A DNA stretch of 64,000 nt, taken from contig JACPTB010000002.1 in the NCBI GenBank assembly GCA_016192995.1, positions 1 through 64,000 of the forward strand, written 5' to 3'. This DNA comes from Candidatus Woesearchaeota archaeon (lineage in GTDB: Archaea; Nanobdellota; Nanobdellia; Woesearchaeales; DSVV01). Positions within the stretch are counted from its first letter, which is position 1. Each line of letters opens with the position of its first letter. Below are positions 3,073-62,928 of this stretch, piece after piece. Under the pieces are notes generated by a model, which did no database searches, was not told where the DNA came from, and was given only the letters and a program-made list of their open reading frames with translations. Position numbers and translations under genes: made by a program.

Positions 3073-5427
3073 CTATTTTTTATCTGTTTTTTTCTTAGCC
3101 ATTCTTTTAGAAACTGTTTTTTTAGCAGGCTTTTCAGCTGAAGCAACTTCAGTTTCAGAAGCAGTTTCTTTTTTAGACTCTTTAATTTTCTTCTCCTTTG
3201 GCTTGCTTTGATAAGGCGCTCCTATAGTTCCATCTTTGTTAATCTTGGCAACGGTTCTGCATGCTGGATAACCAGAACACCCATAAAATTGCCCGTAAAA
3301 TGACTTTCTCAAGATAATTTCTTTGCCACAGTTTGGGCAGGGCTGAGGTAATTTTTCAGGTAATTGCTGGACTGAATTAATTGTTTGTGTATCCTGAACT
3401 TTAGAAGCGCAGTCTGGACCAATGCAAAACAATTGAGGGCGTTTTCCTCTTCTGATAACATTGACTTTTGGCAATCCACAAGTATCGCATACTTGGTCAG
3501 ATGTTTTAATAAGAGCATTGCTTGGCAAAGTAATAGTGACATCACATTGAGGATATTGATCACAAGCAATAAAAAAACCGTATTTCCCACGTTTAATCAT
3601 TAATACCCCTTTATGGCATTTATGGCATTCACCAACAGTATTCGCAATTCGATCTGATTCACGATAGGCATCAATAAGCTCACTTCCTATTTCTTTTTCT
3701 TCCTGCTTAAATTTATGAAGAAGTTTTGTTAAAACATCTTTTGCTTCATCCAAAACTTCCTGATTTTTTTTAGTTCCTTGTTCAATCTGATCCATTTCTT
3801 CTTCAAAGTGGCGTGTTAATTCTTGATCCAAAATTTGAGGAGAATGTTTTTCTAAAGTTTCAACGGTATTAATTCCTAATTTAGTCGCTTGAATTGGCTG
3901 ACCAGTTACATAACCTCTATCAAAAAGTGTTTCAATAACAGTAGCTCGCGTTGCTTTGGTGCCAAGATTTTGCCGCTCTAATTCTTTAATGATAGATGCT
4001 GGTGTGTATCGCTTAGGCGGTTGTGTTTCTTTATCATGTAGCAATACATCGTTTACTTGCACGGATTCTTTTTCTTGAACATGAGGAAGTTCAAGCTCTT
4101 CTAATTTAACATATGGTTCATAAAAAATATGCCATCCTTTTTCAATAGTGCGAGTTCCTTTTGAAAGAAAAGCTTCTCGTTCAATATCTAAGGTGATAAC
4201 TACGGTCTCTCGTTTAGCAGGATCTGCAAACGTCGCAAGAAAACGCTTAGTAATAAGATCATAGATTTTCTGCTGGCGCTCATCAAGAGAAGCATTCTCT
4301 CCTGTTGGATAAATTGCCGGATGTGCTGAATCAGTTTTCTTGCCTTCATGAGGAATCAATTCTTTTTTTGCAAGGAGCTTGGTTGCTAATTCTTTATAAA
4401 CCAAATTACTTTGCAATTTTGTTAACAGAGTTTTATAACCAAGCTCTTTAGGTAATTTCTGTGAAGAGGTTCTTGGATAGGAAATAACACCGGCAAGATA
4501 TAATTCTTGGGCAATAGCAAGCGTGATATTTGGTTGAATTCTAAAGCAGCGATAAGCTTCAATTTGCAGACTCGTTAAATCAAAAGGTGTTGGCGGTGAC
4601 TGGTCAAATTGAGAAGTCTCTAATTTAACAACATAACAAGGCTTGCCTTTGACTTTTTCAAAAATCTCAACTGCTTTTTGCCGCTCATCAAATTTATCTT
4701 GAATATGCCATGCTTCAACAACTGTTTTATTTTTTTCCCATAACAGCTGCAATTGCCAATAAGGCACAGGCACAAAAGCAGCAATTTCCTTTTCCCGGTC
4801 AACTACTATTTTTAAAGCTGGACCTTGAACTCTGCCCGAAGAAAGAATTTTGAATGAACCAGCTGATTTTACTGCTAAGGACAATGCTCTGCTAAGATTA
4901 ATGCCGTAATACCAATCTAATTCATGGCGAGTAAGCCCTGCATTCCCCAAACCCCAATTTAAAGTTTTTGATTTAGTTTCATAGGCTTTTCGCAATTCAT
5001 CTTTAGTTAGAGTTGAGAATTTCATACGCTGCGCATCATTACGCTTGCAGACATATTTCACAATATTTAATCCAATAACCTCTCCTTCAATATCATAATC
5101 GCAAGCTACAGTAATCTCACGAGCATCTTTTGCAAGTTTTTTTAAGGCAGAGACATATTTAGAAGTATATGCTGCGCCTTTAGAAGATTTACTCGTTTGC
5201 TCCCAATAAACATCAAAGATAGGATATGTCCACCCTTTTTTGTCTTTTTCAACAACAGTAAATAAATGACCAACAGCGCAGCCAACAACAATATCTTTAT
5301 TGCCATGAGTTACTTTGTAGTATGGTGCGCCTTGATGATTTTCTTTAATAGGCTTGCCATCTGCCAAAGCTTCAGCTATTTTTTGAGCTGCATTAGGTTT
5401 TTCAGTTATTATTAACTCATAAGTCAT
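3073..5427 (-). CDS. topA: DNA topoisomerase I (type IA)
   Basis: The 784-residue protein relaxes negative supercoils by a covalent 5'-phosphotyrosine intermediate. The N-terminal TOPRIM domain starts at ELIITEKPNAAQKIAEAL (residues 4-21) and carries the acidic motif ACDYDIEGEVIG. The active-site tyrosine lies in ISYPRTSS (about residue 316). Three four-cysteine zinc ribbons follow: CHKCHKG...CDQYPQC, CDTCG...CIGPDC and CPNCG...CSGYPAC. The last 45 residues are a lysine- and alanine-rich tail likely to bind DNA. It sits 33 bases downstream of nadC on the same strand and may be cotranscribed. No reverse-gyrase helicase domain is present. Confidence 0.97.
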   Translation of the reverse strand: MTYELIITEKPNAAQKIAEALADGKPIKENHQGAPYYKVTHGNKDIVVGCAVGHLFTVVEKDKKGWTYPIFDVYWEQTSKSSKGAAYTSKYVSALKKLAKDAREITVACDYDIEGEVIGLNIVKYVCKRNDAQRMKFSTLTKDELRKAYETKSKTLNWGLGNAGLTRHELDWYYGINLSRALSLAVKSAGSFKILSSGRVQGPALKIVVDREKEIAAFVPVPYWQLQLLWEKNKTVVEAWHIQDKFDERQKAVEIFEKVKGKPCYVVKLETSQFDQSPPTPFDLTSLQIEAYRCFRIQPNITLAIAQELYLAGVISYPRTSSQKLPKELGYKTLLTKLQSNLVYKELATKLLAKKELIPHEGKKTDSAHPAIYPTGENASLDERQQKIYDLITKRFLATFADPAKRETVVITLDIEREAFLSKGTRTIEKGWHIFYEPYVKLEELELPHVQEKESVQVNDVLLHDKETQPPKRYTPASIIKELERQNLGTKATRATVIETLFDRGYVTGQPIQATKLGINTVETLEKHSPQILDQELTRHFEEEMDQIEQGTKKNQEVLDEAKDVLTKLLHKFKQEEKEIGSELIDAYRESDRIANTVGECHKCHKGVLMIKRGKYGFFIACDQYPQCDVTITLPSNALIKTSDQVCDTCGLPKVNVIRRGKRPQLFCIGPDCASKVQDTQTINSVQQLPEKLPQPCPNCGKEIILRKSFYGQFYGCSGYPACRTVAKINKDGTIGAPYQSKPKEKKIKESKKETASETEVASAEKPAKKTVSKRMAKKKTDKK

Positions 5428-7483: not shown

Positions 7484-7489
7484 GATTAC

Positions 7490-7652
7490 AGAGAACTTTG
7501 CAAAATTATGGTTACTGCCCATTTCGTGAGCATTTTCGAAAGACTTATCGAGCAATTTTCGAGGTTCCAGAGAGAAAATTGCCTTGTTAAAAGATTATCT
7601 CAATGCGAACTGGCAGTAACCCGAGCTTTGCGAGTATTTTGCAAAGTTCTCT
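7490..7652 (+). repeat. palindromic element, divergent relative of the 155-bp family
   Basis: A 163-bp non-coding palindrome begins just after nurA. Outer arms 7490-7506 and 7636-7652 pair perfectly (17 bp, core AACTTTGCAAAAT). The second stem is GGTTACTGCC / GGCAGTAACC, followed on the left by the internal junction GTGA+GCATT facing AATGC+GAAC on the right. The apical hairpin is GCAATTTTC, loop GAGGTTCCAGAGA, GAAAATTGC. This is the same layout as the elements at 12.8, 17.0, 58.8 and 61.9 kb, with different but compensated stem sequences. No clear target-site duplication flanks this copy. Confidence 0.8.
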
Positions 7653-7701
7653 ACAGAGTTATAGAAAAACTTTATATACGACCATTCTTAGAACAGAAAC
7701 C

Positions 7702-11107: not shown

Positions 11108-12121
11108 ATGGTTGAAAAGATAACTATCCAAAAATGTATTGATCAAAACTTTGTCTTTTTCGACACAAGAACGCCAAACGAGTTTGCCGAAGATCATATC
11201 CCAGGAGCCATAAGCTTGCCTTTATTTTCTAATGAAGAACGGGCGATAGTTGGAACGATATACAAGCAAGTGGGAAAAGAGCAGGCGATTGAAGAAGGAA
11301 TTAAATATTTTTCAGCAAAACTTGATACTTTTTTTAAAGAAGTTAAACAGTATAAACAACAAAAAATAGTGATCTATTGCTGGCGTGGAGGGATGCGTTC
11401 AAAAGCAGTTGCTAGTTTTCTTGAAAGCATTGGTTTTGATGTTTTTCAGCTTGAAGGAGGACATAAAGCATATAGAACTTATGTTCGAGAGCAACTGCCA
11501 AAAATAAGCCTCCCTAAAAACATCTTGGTGCTGTGGGGATTAACAGGTGTTGGAAAAACTGAATTATTAATCACGCTAAAAAAACAAGAGTATAATACTC
11601 TTGATCTTGAAGGATTAGCCCAGCATAGAAGTTCAATGTTTGGAGGCATTGGCTTAAAACCAAGAACGCAAAAGATGTTCGAATCATATTTATTTCAAGC
11701 ATTAAAAACCCTAGAAAATAAAAATTATGTTTTTACTGAAGGTGAGAGCAAGAAGATTGGGAATGTGCAGATACCTGATTTTTTAATGGAAAGTATAAAA
11801 AAAGGAATTAATATTCGCGTTAACGAGAATATTGAAAAAAGAGCAAAAAGAATAACAAAAGAATATTATCAAGACCCTGAGATGATTGAAGAAATTAAAA
11901 AGATAATTCCAAAAACAAAGCAAAAAGTCGGTAAACAACAGGTGCAAATGATGCTTAATGCGTTAGAACAAAAAGATTTTATAACAACCAATAAAATTCT
12001 TTTAGAATATTATTATGATCCATTATATAAATACACCATAGATGCCATTAAATATGAATCTATTATTACTAATGACATAGAAGGATTGAAAAAATTAAAA
12101 GAACTTGTAATAACAATATGA
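11108..12121 (+). CDS. mnmH: tRNA 2-selenouridine synthase
   Basis: The 337-residue protein matches MnmH/SelU, which geranylates and then selenates 2-thiouridine at the wobble position of tRNAs for Lys, Glu and Gln. The N-terminal rhodanese domain carries FDTRTPNEFAEDHIPGA (about 18-34) and the catalytic cysteine in YCWRGGMRSKA (about 90-100). The C-terminal P-loop NTPase domain starts WGLTGVGKTELL (about 142-153). The protein is full length, not split as in some methanogens. It overlaps the following helicase fragment by four bases. Selenophosphate synthetase (SelD) is not in the window. Confidence 0.9.
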   Translation: MVEKITIQKCIDQNFVFFDTRTPNEFAEDHIPGAISLPLFSNEERAIVGTIYKQVGKEQAIEEGIKYFSAKLDTFFKEVKQYKQQKIVIYCWRGGMRSKAVASFLESIGFDVFQLEGGHKAYRTYVREQLPKISLPKNILVLWGLTGVGKTELLITLKKQEYNTLDLEGLAQHRSSMFGGIGLKPRTQKMFESYLFQALKTLENKNYVFTEGESKKIGNVQIPDFLMESIKKGINIRVNENIEKRAKRITKEYYQDPEMIEEIKKIIPKTKQKVGKQQVQMMLNALEQKDFITTNKILLEYYYDPLYKYTIDAIKYESIITNDIEGLKKLKELVITI

Positions 12122-12780
12122 AATTAGAAAAATTAAAGGACAAAATCCCTGAAAAAGTATACGCCAAATTAGTAGAAAGAAAATTTAATGAGCTTTTGCC
12201 TTGCCAAGTCAAAGCAATACAACAGGGGCTTTTTGAAGACAAAAATCTATTGGTTTGTACACCAACTGGTTCAGGAAAAACCTTAGTTGCAGAATTGGGG
12301 ATTATTAATGCTATTTTCCATGATATTGGTAAAGCGATTTACATTGTGCCATTAAAATCATTAGCTTCTGAAAAATTCAAAGAATTTAAACAACGGTATC
12401 CAAACATTAAGATTGCGCTTTCCATTGGGGATATTGATAGTTCAGACAGTTATCTTAAAGAATATGATCTTATTTTATGCACCTCTGAAAAGTTAGATTC
12501 ATTAATAAGGCATCAAACACCTTGGTTAAAAGATATTAAAGTAGTAATCGTTGATGAAATACATTTGCTCCATGATCCAGAACGCGGACCAACACTTGAA
12601 ATTATGATTACTCTTTTGCGCCATGTATTAAAGAATATTCAGATCATAGGATTATCTGCCACTATTGGCAATCCAGACGAATTAGCAGCATGGCTTGATG
12701 CAGAACTGGTGATAGATACTTGGAGACCAGTAAGATTAGACAAAGGTATTTATTTAGAGGGGAACATTGAGTTTGTATAA
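12118..12780 (+). pseudogene. truncated Hel308/Ski2-like DNA helicase, N-terminal part
   Basis: The 220 residues cover only the first RecA domain of a superfamily 2 helicase: Q-like LPCQVKAIQQGLF, Walker A TPTGSGKT (48-55), motif Ia IVPLKSLASEKFKEF, motif Ib TSEKLDSLIR, Walker B DEIH (about 145-148) and motif III GLSATIGN. The match continues to RPVRLDKGIYLEG and then meets a stop. Hel308 proteins run to about 700 residues, so the second RecA domain, winged helix and ratchet are missing. The stop lies in the target duplication shared by both sides of the palindromic element at 12784, so it predates that insertion. A short standalone protein is possible but it could not unwind DNA. Confidence 0.8.
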
Positions 12781-12783
12781 ACA

Positions 12784-12936
12784 GTTCGTAATAAGTCCTC
12801 TTTGTTTTTAGTGCCAGTTCAGCTTTTGAAGAGTATTTCAATTGGATTTTTCTCTCTGGCACTCCGAAAAATCCCCAATCTCAATTTGAGAAGAGCTTCA
12901 CGAAAGAGGCACTAAAAACCCAGACTTATTACGAAC
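12784..12936 (-). mobile_element. 155-bp palindromic MITE-like element, copy A1 (reverse orientation)
   Basis: Terminal arms GTTCGTAATAAGTC (12784-12797) and GACTTATTACGAAC (12923-12936) are perfect inverted repeats. The element is flanked by a perfect 8-bp direct repeat TATAAACA at 12776-12783 and 12937-12944, exactly abutting the arms, which is the mark of transposition. Read on the minus strand it shows the family layout: GGTTTTTAGTGCC stem, GTGAAGCT / AGCTGAAC junction, and apical hairpin GGATTTTTC, loop GGAGTGCCAGAGA, GAAAAATCC. It has no open frame of its own and lies after the helicase fragment. Confidence 0.88.
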
Positions 12937-12979
12937 TATAAACAGAAAACTATAAAAAAGACTATAGCTCAAACAAAGC

Positions 12980-16847: not shown

Positions 16848-16891
16848 AATATTGAAAAATAAGTAAGGATTAATAAAGCTAACTTTATTTT

Positions 16892-17279
16892 GTATGTATT
16901 AAGTATGGGGTTTTAGTGCCTACATTCTTAGTTCTGTCCTGAATGTATTGCGCAGCAATATACCATCAAAGAAAGTCAAATGTTATCAAACACTTTCTTT
17001 GATCAGTAAAGTTTTTGGTGCCATGCTGGTGATTATCCTTCAAATTAATACGTGGGAAAAAAGGAAGTTCCAGTGGGAATTTTTTCTTTGTTACACACAA
17101 ACGGGATAATCACGGCACCAAAACCGAGGCTATGCCGAGATTCAGGACAGAACTCCTTTTTGTGAAGCTCTTCTTAAATTTATATTGGGGATTTTTCGGA
17201 GTGCCAGAGAGAAAAATCCAATTGATATACACTTCAGAAGCTGAACCGGCACTAAAACCGAAGAAGACTTAATACGTAC
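16892..17279 (+). mobile_element. palindromic MITE-like element, copy A2, interrupted by a second element
   Basis: The outer arms are GTATGTATTAAGT (16892-16904) and ACTTAATACGTAC (17267-17279), one mismatch in 13. Next inside are GGTTTTAGTGCC and GGCACTAAAACC. The rest of the left arm resumes only after 17155 with TTTTTGTGAAGCT, because 16930-17154 is a different structured element. Without that insert the copy would be about 160 bp like the others. The apical hairpin is GGATTTTTC, loop GGAGTGCCAGAGA, GAAAAATCC. Flanks TTTATTTT (16884-16891) and TTTAGTTT (17280-17287) match at 7 of 8 positions, a probable aged target duplication. Confidence 0.82.
16930..17154 (+). mobile_element. 225-bp structured element B nested in copy A2
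   Basis: Perfect 15-bp terminal inverted repeats AGTTCTGTCCTGAAT (16930-16944) and ATTCAGGACAGAACT (17140-17154) bound this non-coding segment. Inside are a small hairpin ATTGC/GCAAT, a 12-bp hairpin ATCAAAGAAAGT (16965-16976) with ACTTTCTTTGAT (16992-17003), paired arms TTTTGGTGCC (17013-17022) with GGCACCAAAA (17114-17123), then GTGATTATCC (17029-17038) with GGATAATCAC (17104-17113), and an apical hairpin around GGAAGTTCCAGTGGGAA. It shares the apical GTTCCAG core and inner-stem placement with family A but is longer and carries side hairpins. Target duplication is unclear. Confidence 0.75.
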
Positions 17280-17290
17280 TTTAGTTTAAG

Positions 17291-58753: not shown

Positions 58754-58768
58754 ATAGTCTATTTCTTC

Positions 58769-58921
58769 GTACGTAATAAGTCTGGGGTTTTAGCGCCTGC
58801 TTTTGTGAAGCTCCTCAATATCTTTATTGGGGATTTTTCGGAGTTCCAGAGAGAAAAATCCAATTAATAATCACATGAAAAGCTGAACCGGCGCTAAAAC
58901 CTAAGAAGACTTATTACGTAC
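58769..58921 (+). mobile_element. 155-bp palindromic MITE-like element, copy A3
   Basis: Perfect 15-bp terminal inverted repeats GTACGTAATAAGTCT (58769-58783) and AGACTTATTACGTAC (58907-58921) are flanked by a perfect 8-bp direct repeat ATTTCTTC at 58761-58768 and 58922-58929. Inner stem GGTTTTAGCGCC / GGCGCTAAAACC, junction GTGAAGCT / AGCTGAAC, apical hairpin GGATTTTTC, loop GGAGTTCCAGAGA, GAAAAATCC. This is the best-preserved copy and lies between two convergent genes. Confidence 0.9.
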
Positions 58922-58932
58922 ATTTCTTCCAG

Positions 58933-61698: not shown

Positions 61699-61833
61699 AG
61701 TCTTACCTCAAATCGCATAAAGATGTGGAGAATAAGTATTTATTTAATCTTATCTCCGGTGTAGACAAGCATGTGCCGATCCACCCATCATGAATAAAAA
61801 ACCGAGAAGTATTTATAAAGTTATTCTTTAGTT
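61699..61833 (-). other. upstream region of rps15
   Basis: No gene is seen. On the minus strand two TATA-like boxes occur, CTTTATAAATACT (about 61808-61820) and TTAAATAAATAC (about 61735-61748). Between them lies a GC-richer stretch with imperfect GGTG...CACC pairing (61757-61784). It could be a leader RNA or small transcript ahead of rps15; no known family is recognised. Confidence 0.3.
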
Positions 61834-61988
61834 GTACGTAATAAGTTGGGGTTTTAGCACCTACTTTTGTGAAGCTGTTCTTATATTTGCTGTGAGGATT
61901 TTTCGGAGTTCCAGAGAGAAAAATCCAATGTTTAATCACATCTCAAAGCTGAACTGGTGCTAAAACCTAAAGAAGACTTATTACGTAT
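61834..61988 (+). mobile_element. 155-bp palindromic MITE-like element, copy A4
   Basis: Arms GTACGTAATAAGT (61834-61846) and ACTTATTACGTAT (61976-61988) match with one mismatch at the tip. Flanks CTTTAGTT (61826-61833) and CTTTACTT (61989-61996) agree at 7 of 8 bases. Inner stem GGTTTTAGCACC / GGTGCTAAAACC, junction GTGAAGCT / AGCTGAAC, apical hairpin as in A3. The right tip forms the last codon and stop of the HtrA-like gene. Confidence 0.88.
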
Positions 61989-62928
61989 CTTTACTTTCAG
62001 CATAATGAGCAATTGTTTCTTCAACTAATTTTTCAACAGTGTCTGGATTCATGGCAAATCCAATGCCTTCTGATTCTTGTGTTTTAAACGAGTTAATACC
62101 CACTATTCTTCCATTTGCGCTGATTAATGGCCCTCCTGAATTCCCAGGATTAATAGGAACGTCAGTTTGAACAACAGAATAACCATAAGCATTTTTCCGC
62201 TTAAGCGAACTAACAATACCTTCAGTGACGGTAAAGTCGAGCCCAAAAGGACTCCCTAAAGCAATTACTTTTTGCCCGACTTTAAGATCTTCTAAATCAT
62301 CAAATTTAAGGTCAAAAAAAGTGTCATTACTTACTATTTTAAGCACAGCAATGTCAGCAGTATCGCTGTATGACATAATTTTTGCAGCATAGTGTTTGCC
62401 TGAAGAAGTAACAACACTTAATTTACTTATACCTTCAATAACATGATAATTAGTTACAACATAGCCATCTTCAGTAACAATGACACCGCTGCCTACTCCC
62501 TTATTAGTTCTGACACCAACAACGCCTTTAATAACCGTTTCAATAATGGCAGTAAAACTTTCACTTTTAATATTAATATCAAGTATTTTTGACTCTAGTT
62601 CTCCTAATTTTGATTTGCTTTCTTCTTCTAATTGCACTAAATTGGTTGTTAAACCACTGATTTTTTTAGATTGCAGAGATTCAGATTTCTCTAATGCTGT
62701 ATACAACGCAGCAGTTTTTTCATCTAAAGCTGCTTGCAGCTGTTGATTAACCCCTTGCACTTGATTTTCAAGATCAGATTTTGTAGTAACAAGTTGATCT
62801 TGTAAGTTCCCTAACGCTGTATCTAAACGAAGATTCTGCTGGTATTGGTAGTAATAACCATATCCTAACCCTAAAAAGAGTAATAACATAAGAATACTAA
62901 AAATAAGTACCTGTCGTTCTTTATGCAT
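61981..62928 (-). CDS. HtrA/DegP-like serine protease, membrane-anchored, no PDZ
   Basis: The 315-residue protein has an N-terminal membrane span (LIFSILMLLLFLGLGYGYYY, about 8-27), a coiled coil (about 30-120) and a trypsin-like domain with His in VTNYHVIEG (about 158), Asp in YSDTADIAVLKI (about 190) and Ser in NPGNSGGPLI (about 264). The protease domain faces outside. There is no PDZ domain, unlike typical DegP. The final residues and stop come from the tip of the adjacent palindromic element (KDT then TAA). Confidence 0.9.
   Translation of the reverse strand: MHKERQVLIFSILMLLLFLGLGYGYYYQYQQNLRLDTALGNLQDQLVTTKSDLENQVQGVNQQLQAALDEKTAALYTALEKSESLQSKKISGLTTNLVQLEEESKSKLGELESKILDINIKSESFTAIIETVIKGVVGVRTNKGVGSGVIVTEDGYVVTNYHVIEGISKLSVVTSSGKHYAAKIMSYSDTADIAVLKIVSNDTFFDLKFDDLEDLKVGQKVIALGSPFGLDFTVTEGIVSSLKRKNAYGYSVVQTDVPINPGNSGGPLISANGRIVGINSFKTQESEGIGFAMNPDTVEKLVEETIAHYAESKDT

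What the first reader, a model, noticed from the sequence alone, without database searches (positions are those of the whole stretch)
12776..12944. 8-bp target-site duplications show that the palindromic elements transpose
TATAAACA abuts both ends of the 12.8-kb copy and ATTTCTTC abuts both ends of the 58.8-kb copy, each perfect over 8 bp. The copies at 17.0 kb (TTTATTTT/TTTAGTTT) and 61.9 kb (CTTTAGTT/CTTTACTT) match 7 of 8. Terminal inverted repeats plus a fixed duplication length, with no coding capacity, is the MITE pattern, driven by a transposase elsewhere.
Basis: partly seen in the sequence, partly recalled or inferred. Interest (0 to 1): 0.8.

Follow-up and report, generated by a model that had tools for sequence, protein, structure and literature searches.

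The report
Archaeal hairpin MITEs sharing structured core
The repeated hairpins in this archaeal genome really are small jumping DNA elements that duplicate 8 bases of target when they insert, and they carry a folded core that the same genome also carries inside other jumping elements with different ends and different duplication lengths (9 and 4 bases).

Summary
All four window copies carry the stated flanking 8-mers, two perfect and two 7 of 8. Across 83 copies with recognisable ends in this genome, 37 have a perfect 8-bp duplication, 52 match at 7 or more of 8, and none is longer; about 1% of shuffled flank pairs reach that. These are transposed MITE-like elements.

A structured core of about 113 nt (26 base pairs, 15 with compensatory changes, near-invariant loop TCTCTGGAACTCCG) recurs inside elements with other ends and other duplication lengths in the same genome: GGCTCTGGTGAAAAT with 9 bp, GAGAACTTTGCAAA with 4 bp, GGCACAATCCAA with probably 8 bp. 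A fifth window copy (7491-7651) is of the 4-bp kind. The core occurs in 35 of 353 genomes of the order, was not found outside it, and matches no Rfam family.

The transposase for these ends was not found. The genome does hold another multicopy IS with 8-bp duplications, its interior missing from the assembly. In one relative the core is the right end of a longer element whose left end opens a reading frame. What the core does is unknown.

The parts
12784..12936 (+). family I element (153 bp), ends GTTCGTAATAAGTC/GACTTATTACGAAC; core 12805-12918 (+)
12776..12783 (.). left copy of the target duplication TATAAACA
12937..12944 (.). right copy of the target duplication TATAAACA
16892..17279 (-). 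family I composite (388 bp) with a nested second element; core 17146-17258 (-); flanks TTTATTTT (16884-16891) and TTTAGTTT (17280-17287), 7 of 8
16930..17154 (-). nested element with ends AGTTCTGTCCTGAA/TTCAGGACAGAACT (family V type), type-2 core 17012-17124 (-)
58769..58921 (-). family I element with perfect ends; core 58787-58900 (-)
58761..58768 (.). left copy of the target duplication ATTTCTTC
58922..58929 (.). right copy of the target duplication ATTTCTTC
61834..61988 (-). family I element; core 61851-61966 (-); flanks CTTTAGTT (61826-61833) and CTTTACTT (61989-61996), 7 of 8
7491..7651 (-). family III element (161 bp) with the same core (7509-7622, -) but ends GAGAACTTTGCAAAAT and a perfect 4-bp duplication TACA (7487-7490 / 7652-7655)

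Best explanation
The window elements are non-autonomous DNA transposons (MITE-like). A transposase acting in trans on the paired ends GTACGTAATAAGTC inserted them with an 8-bp staggered cut. The insertion with 8-bp duplication is shown; the enzyme is inferred and not identified. They belong to a wider superfamily in this archaeal order (Woesearchaeales-like, by two named relatives). In it, one folded core of about 113 nt is carried by several kinds of transposon ends, each with its own duplication length (8, 9 and 4 bp shown in this genome), so presumably moved by different transposases. The core moves between ends by recombination and nested insertion: one chimeric copy has a family I left end and a family II right end, and composite elements have been re-inserted as units. 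The core's stems are kept paired by compensatory changes while its loop and internal-loop bases stay nearly fixed, so I infer selection on a single-stranded folded form. In one relative the core is the right end of a longer element whose left end opens a reading frame. My best guess is that the core began as the structured non-coding end of autonomous insertion sequences and now travels as a module. Its biochemical role, and whether DNA or RNA is the folded form, is not established.
For: Target duplication of exactly 8 bp in family I: 37/83 perfect, none longer, about 1% of shuffled pairs reach 7-8. Same core with other ends: of 52 strong core hits in 432 kb of this genome, 25 have family I ends, 13 family II, 7 family III, 3 family IV, 4 mixed or single. 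Duplication length by family: II peaks only at 9 (12 perfect of 39 candidate pairs, some of them chance matches), III only at 4 (10 perfect of 19). Nested insertion: a family III element sits in a family I copy as CCTAAA[element]TAAAGAAG, and six other family I copies, window 61834-61988 among them, hold the undisturbed CCTAAAGAAG. Structure: 98.0% of cells paired, 15 of 26 pairs with two-sided change, covariation 0.385 against at most 0.098 when slid. Core in 35 of 353 genomes in the order, 24 genera, none of the other sampled genomes of its own family. Other genomes have other ends with 8- or 9-bp duplications, e.g. ACAAACAA in G208 and GGCAAATA in G154, read from the sequences. G125: five left/right contig ends share perfect 9-mers. 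An element with family I ends but another interior also has a perfect 8-bp duplication (L053:3806-3959).
Against: No autonomous element with family I ends was found. 26 of 83 copies show a duplication match of 5/8 or less; some of these are explained by nesting or decay, not all were examined. No closely related genome gave an orthologous empty site for family I. G-T and A-C mismatches in the end stems are equally rare (6 and 7), which gives no sign that RNA rather than DNA is the folded form. The G125 reading frame is only 30-31 codons long before the assembly breaks and matches no family.
Confidence: 0.8

Rival explanations
1. Ordinary MITEs: one IS lost its interior and the deletion derivative spread; the core is passive leftover DNA, and its arms stay complementary because hairpins are corrected arm against arm (template switching or gene conversion), without selection.
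For: Substitutions in the ends are symmetric far more often than chance: 16 symmetric pairs seen, 0.25 expected. G-T and A-C mismatches are balanced. No orientation bias to neighbouring genes, 11 same against 13 opposite.
Against: Arm correction cannot keep the asymmetric loop and internal-loop bases fixed across several families of the order. The core sits inside elements with 8-, 9- and 4-bp duplications, which a single parent IS does not give.
Confidence: 0.25
2. The core is a functional RNA (regulatory or protein-binding) that benefits the host or the transposon, spread by transposition much as SINEs spread RNA-derived sequences.
For: Compensatory changes with a near-invariant loop, typical of structured RNA; strand-specific loop sequence; about 195 copies extrapolated for the genome.
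Against: No Rfam match. No excess of G-T over A-C in the end stems. No fixed orientation to genes. No transcript data.
Confidence: 0.25
3. The 8-mers are chance matches at AT-rich sites and the repeats spread by recombination, not transposition.
For: Sites are AT-rich, and 26 of 83 copies lack a good match.
Against: A single sharp peak at n=8 against shuffled flanks, and an exact nested empty site for family III.
Confidence: 0.02

Closest known systems
MITEs of bacteria and archaea, e.g. Sulfolobus solfataricus SM1-SM4 (25-44 copies per family; review PMC10969869)
   Same: Short, no coding capacity, inverted-repeat ends, fixed-length target duplication, AT-rich intergenic sites, stem-loop folding, multicopy.
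   Different: Here the interior, not the ends, is what is shared between families with different duplication lengths, and it is conserved by compensatory change across families of an order. No partner IS identified for these ends.
BOX elements of streptococci (PMC3049150)
   Same: Modular, hairpin-forming intergenic repeats; in S. suis the same boxB module lies between two different pairs of end modules.
   Different: Here each kind of end has its own target-duplication length. No sequence relation was tested.
Rickettsia palindromic elements (from own knowledge)
   Same: Palindromic, structured, multicopy; here too some copies lie inside open reading frames.
   Different: Mostly intergenic here, with clear target duplications. 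In-frame insertion was not established.
IS-associated structured RNAs or ends such as IS200/IS605 omega RNA and IS110 bridge RNA (from own knowledge)
   Same: A structured non-coding segment at one end of a coding transposon, as suggested in G125.
   Different: Those transposons make no 8-9-bp duplications with inverted-repeat ends; no guide function was seen or tested here.

Membership tests
MITE | terminal inverted repeats | tested here: met
   14-bp ends, 1108 of 1134 cells Watson-Crick over 81 copies
MITE | fixed-length target-site duplication | tested here: met
   exactly 8 bp, 37/83 perfect, none longer
MITE | short, no coding capacity, multicopy | tested here: met
   153 bp typical; at least 80 copies with these ends
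MITE | ends match an autonomous IS whose transposase moves it in trans | tested here: not met
   no element with these ends and an ORF in the sequence examined; six transposase families without a hit over cut-off; assembly gaps keep the test weak. Read strictly, only 'MITE-like' is claimed
MITE | orthologous empty site with one copy of the target | not tested
   the other sampled genomes of the family belong to other genera; only a nested (paralogous) empty site, for family III, was shown
known Rfam RNA family | match to a covariance model | tested here: not met
   no match at gathering threshold; one chance-level match at E 0.56
IS1 family (seen in G205, G208, G238) | IS1 ends GGTAGTGT... | tested here: not met
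   the IS1 copies there end in GGTAGTGT-type or similar repeats, unlike any hairpin family

The most novel reading that the evidence does not exclude
A single folded nucleic-acid module acts as a portable cis-acting part of DDE transposition in an archaeal order: it is the structured end of autonomous insertion sequences, and it is exchanged between unrelated transposon ends, so that different transposases with 4-, 8- and 9-bp cuts all move elements built round the same core.
Probability: 0.3. Interest if true: 0.85.

Novelty: new variant of a known kind. Interest (0 to 1): 0.62.

Why it matters
MITEs are usually defined by their ends and assumed to be empty inside. Here the inside is the conserved part, under compensatory change across many genera, while ends and duplication lengths differ. 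That makes a testable case for a transposon module with a function of its own, in DPANN-type archaea where mobile elements have hardly been described. It also shows that standard metagenome assemblies can hide the autonomous partners: both this genome and G125 break exactly at multicopy IS ends.

Tried and rejected
IS1595, IS4/IS5 (DDE_Tnp_1), IS6, IS256, IS1 and rve transposases as partners: no hit over cut-off in this genome. The one weak IS256 hit is a YchF-type GTPase. DDE_Tnp_1 and rve genes in relatives showed no matching ends; one hit inside an IS1634-like ORF is chance. IS1 in G205, G208 and G238: ends do not match. Variable arms V1/V2 considered as guide sequences for target choice: they recur in many combinations and some form small hairpins; no link to the flanks was tested. 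Orthologous empty sites by joined flanks against held relatives: only low-identity matches of no use. Core loop motif in virus contigs: none. A cis-regulatory RNA in fixed orientation to genes: no bias. In G334 the core lies between sufB/sufD-like genes, not behind a transposase. Literature on MITEs in Woesearchaeota: nothing relevant.

Full report
Check of the observation. The 12.8-kb element is a 153-bp palindrome at 12784-12936 with TATAAACA directly on both sides. The whole genome (1,617,290 bases, 16 contigs, 99.6% complete) holds 139 exact CGTAATAAGTC words against 3 for the reversed control. I catalogued 83 elements with these ends. In 37 the flanks match over exactly 8 bases, in 15 at 7 of 8, and no copy has an exact match longer than 8; exchanging the right flanks among copies gives 7-8 matches in about 1% of pairs. 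Flank identity is 0.78 at length 8 and 0.30-0.41 at all other lengths from 3 to 12. The duplication is real and its length is fixed.

Anatomy. Copies differ by up to about 15-18%, yet the ends stay complementary: over 81 copies, 1108 of 1134 end pairs are Watson-Crick, and 16 pairs changed symmetrically where 0.25 would be expected if the two arms mutated independently. Inside lie an 11-bp stem (helix A), a short helix B, a 9-bp hairpin with loop TCTCTGGAACTCCG, and two variable arms found in many combinations. Longer forms (199-388 bp) hold further hairpin modules inside the stem or the central loop, and several of these composites have their own 7-8 of 8 flanking match, so composites were re-inserted as units. 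One element with the same ends and helix A but a different interior (L053:3806-3959) also has a perfect 8-bp duplication, so the CTCTCTGG loop is not needed for insertion, unless the interior was exchanged afterwards.

The core is shared. In relatives the centre of the element is conserved while the ends are not. An alignment of 28 cores from this genome, G051, G057 and a named Woesearchaeota contig gives 98.0% paired cells, 15 of 26 pairs with changes on both sides, and covariation 0.385 against at most 0.098 when one side is slid. A covariance model finds the core in 35 of 353 genomes of the order, in 24 genera, but in none of the other sampled genomes of the window's own family. In a sample of 371 genomes drawn across the phylum all 13 positives are in the same order. 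Rfam has no match. Named relatives are 'Nanoarchaeota archaeon C21_metabat.bin.55' and 'Candidatus Woesearchaeota archaeon NC_groundwater_84'.

The core wears different ends in one genome. In 432 kb of this genome the model gives 52 strong hits, which extrapolates to about 195 per genome. By their ends they are 25 family I (GTACGTAATAAGTC), 13 family II (GGCTCTGGTGAAAAT), 7 family III (GAGAACTTTGCAAA), 3 family IV (GGCACAATCCAA) and 4 mixed or single-ended. Family II flanks match only at length 9, family III only at length 4. Family IV has one perfect 8-bp case and too few copies to judge. The window itself holds a family III copy at 7491-7651 with TACA on both sides. One copy (L100:3125 onward) has a family I left end and a family II right end, so ends and core recombine. 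A family III element inside a family I copy leaves CCTAAA and TAAAGAAG at its borders; six other family I copies, the window copy at 61834-61988 among them, have the uninterrupted CCTAAAGAAG. That is a direct empty-site test for the 4-bp family. Different fixed duplication lengths mean different transposases (established knowledge of DDE enzymes); the enzymes themselves are inferred.

Search for the enzyme. No element with family I ends and coding capacity was found: exact end words were searched genome-wide (the first 100 of 139 shown, the rest looked for in stretches fetched), unpaired ends were read with flanks, and long end pairs were looked for in all held stretches. Six transposase families gave nothing over their cut-off in this genome. 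This is weaker than it looks. Contig ends C2/C7/C15 share the left end of a multicopy IS (GGCGTTGTCCCGAAAGTC plus a reading frame of at least 68 codons) and contig ends C4/C7/C9 share the right end of one (end of a reading frame plus CTCTCGGGACAGAGCC). C15 and C9 carry the same 8-mer ATTATTTC outside these ends, and C2 and C4/C7 carry GATTTAAA, so they look like the two ends of one IS with an 8-bp duplication whose interior is missing from the assembly. Its N-terminus has only a sub-threshold similarity to DUF4372 (E 0.062), so its family is open. Its ends resemble the family V elements (GGCTCTGTCCCGAA), not family I.

A coding relative. In G125 nine identical cores sit at contig ends, always shortly before the end sequence AATGGATGAAGCC; other contigs end in GGCTTCATCCAAT followed by the start of a reading frame (MGEPNIRLNPQIDSIRNRVLLERAVKLLLS). 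Five left and right flanks share perfect 9-mers (TAATTTTTA, TGATAATCC, GGACAAAAA, CTTGACTGC, CTAAAGAGA). So in G125 the core is the right end of a recently active longer element. That this element encodes its transposase is inferred from 30-31 open codons, and no family matches them.

Mechanism. Shown: insertion with fixed duplications, one core with several end types, stem compensation with nearly fixed loop bases, chimeras and nested elements. Inferred: mobilisation in trans by several DDE transposases; selection on a folded single strand; origin of the core as the structured end of autonomous elements. Against an RNA role are the balanced G-T and A-C mismatches and the lack of orientation bias (11 same, 13 opposite); neither excludes it.

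Comparison. The closest known things are prokaryotic MITEs (PMC10969869) and the modular BOX repeats of streptococci, where the same boxB module lies between different end modules in S. suis (PMC3049150). This case differs in that the shared interior is conserved across many genera by compensatory change and in that the end types have different duplication lengths. Filed strictly, it is MITE-like: the defining partner IS was looked for and not found.

Noticed in passing
window 12118-12780: A 220-aa ORF with only the N-terminal DEAD helicase domain ends just before the element, its stop lying in the TATAAACA duplication; the C-terminal half of the helicase does not follow. Possibly a truncated helicase gene.
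   Followed up: partly
contig ends C2, C7, C15 (left end) and C4, C7, C9 (right end) of G000; L106, L228, L098, L231, L235, L239: A multicopy insertion sequence with 8-bp duplications is collapsed and missing from the assembly; only its ends remain at contig edges.
   Followed up: partly
L095:5671-6023: Family IV and family I elements stand side by side with the same 8-mer GTAAATCT three times: two insertions at one target.
   Followed up: no
L089:1909-4008 (element 3086-3238): A family II element lies inside a 699-codon open reading frame without breaking it; 153+9 bases is a multiple of three. Possibly an in-frame insertion like Rickettsia palindromic elements.
   Followed up: partly
family I copies genome-wide: Two variable arms beside the central hairpin occur as recurring variants in many combinations, as if shuffled between copies.
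   Followed up: partly
window 17012-17124; L101:2052-2164; L099:13933-14045: A second core type (hairpin AAAAAATTCC..CTGGAACTTCCTTTTTT) shares the CTGGAACT loop with the main core and sits in family II and V ends.
   Followed up: partly
G238: 49 IS1-family transposase fragments, nearly all at contig ends: a high-copy IS1 that breaks the assembly.
   Followed up: no
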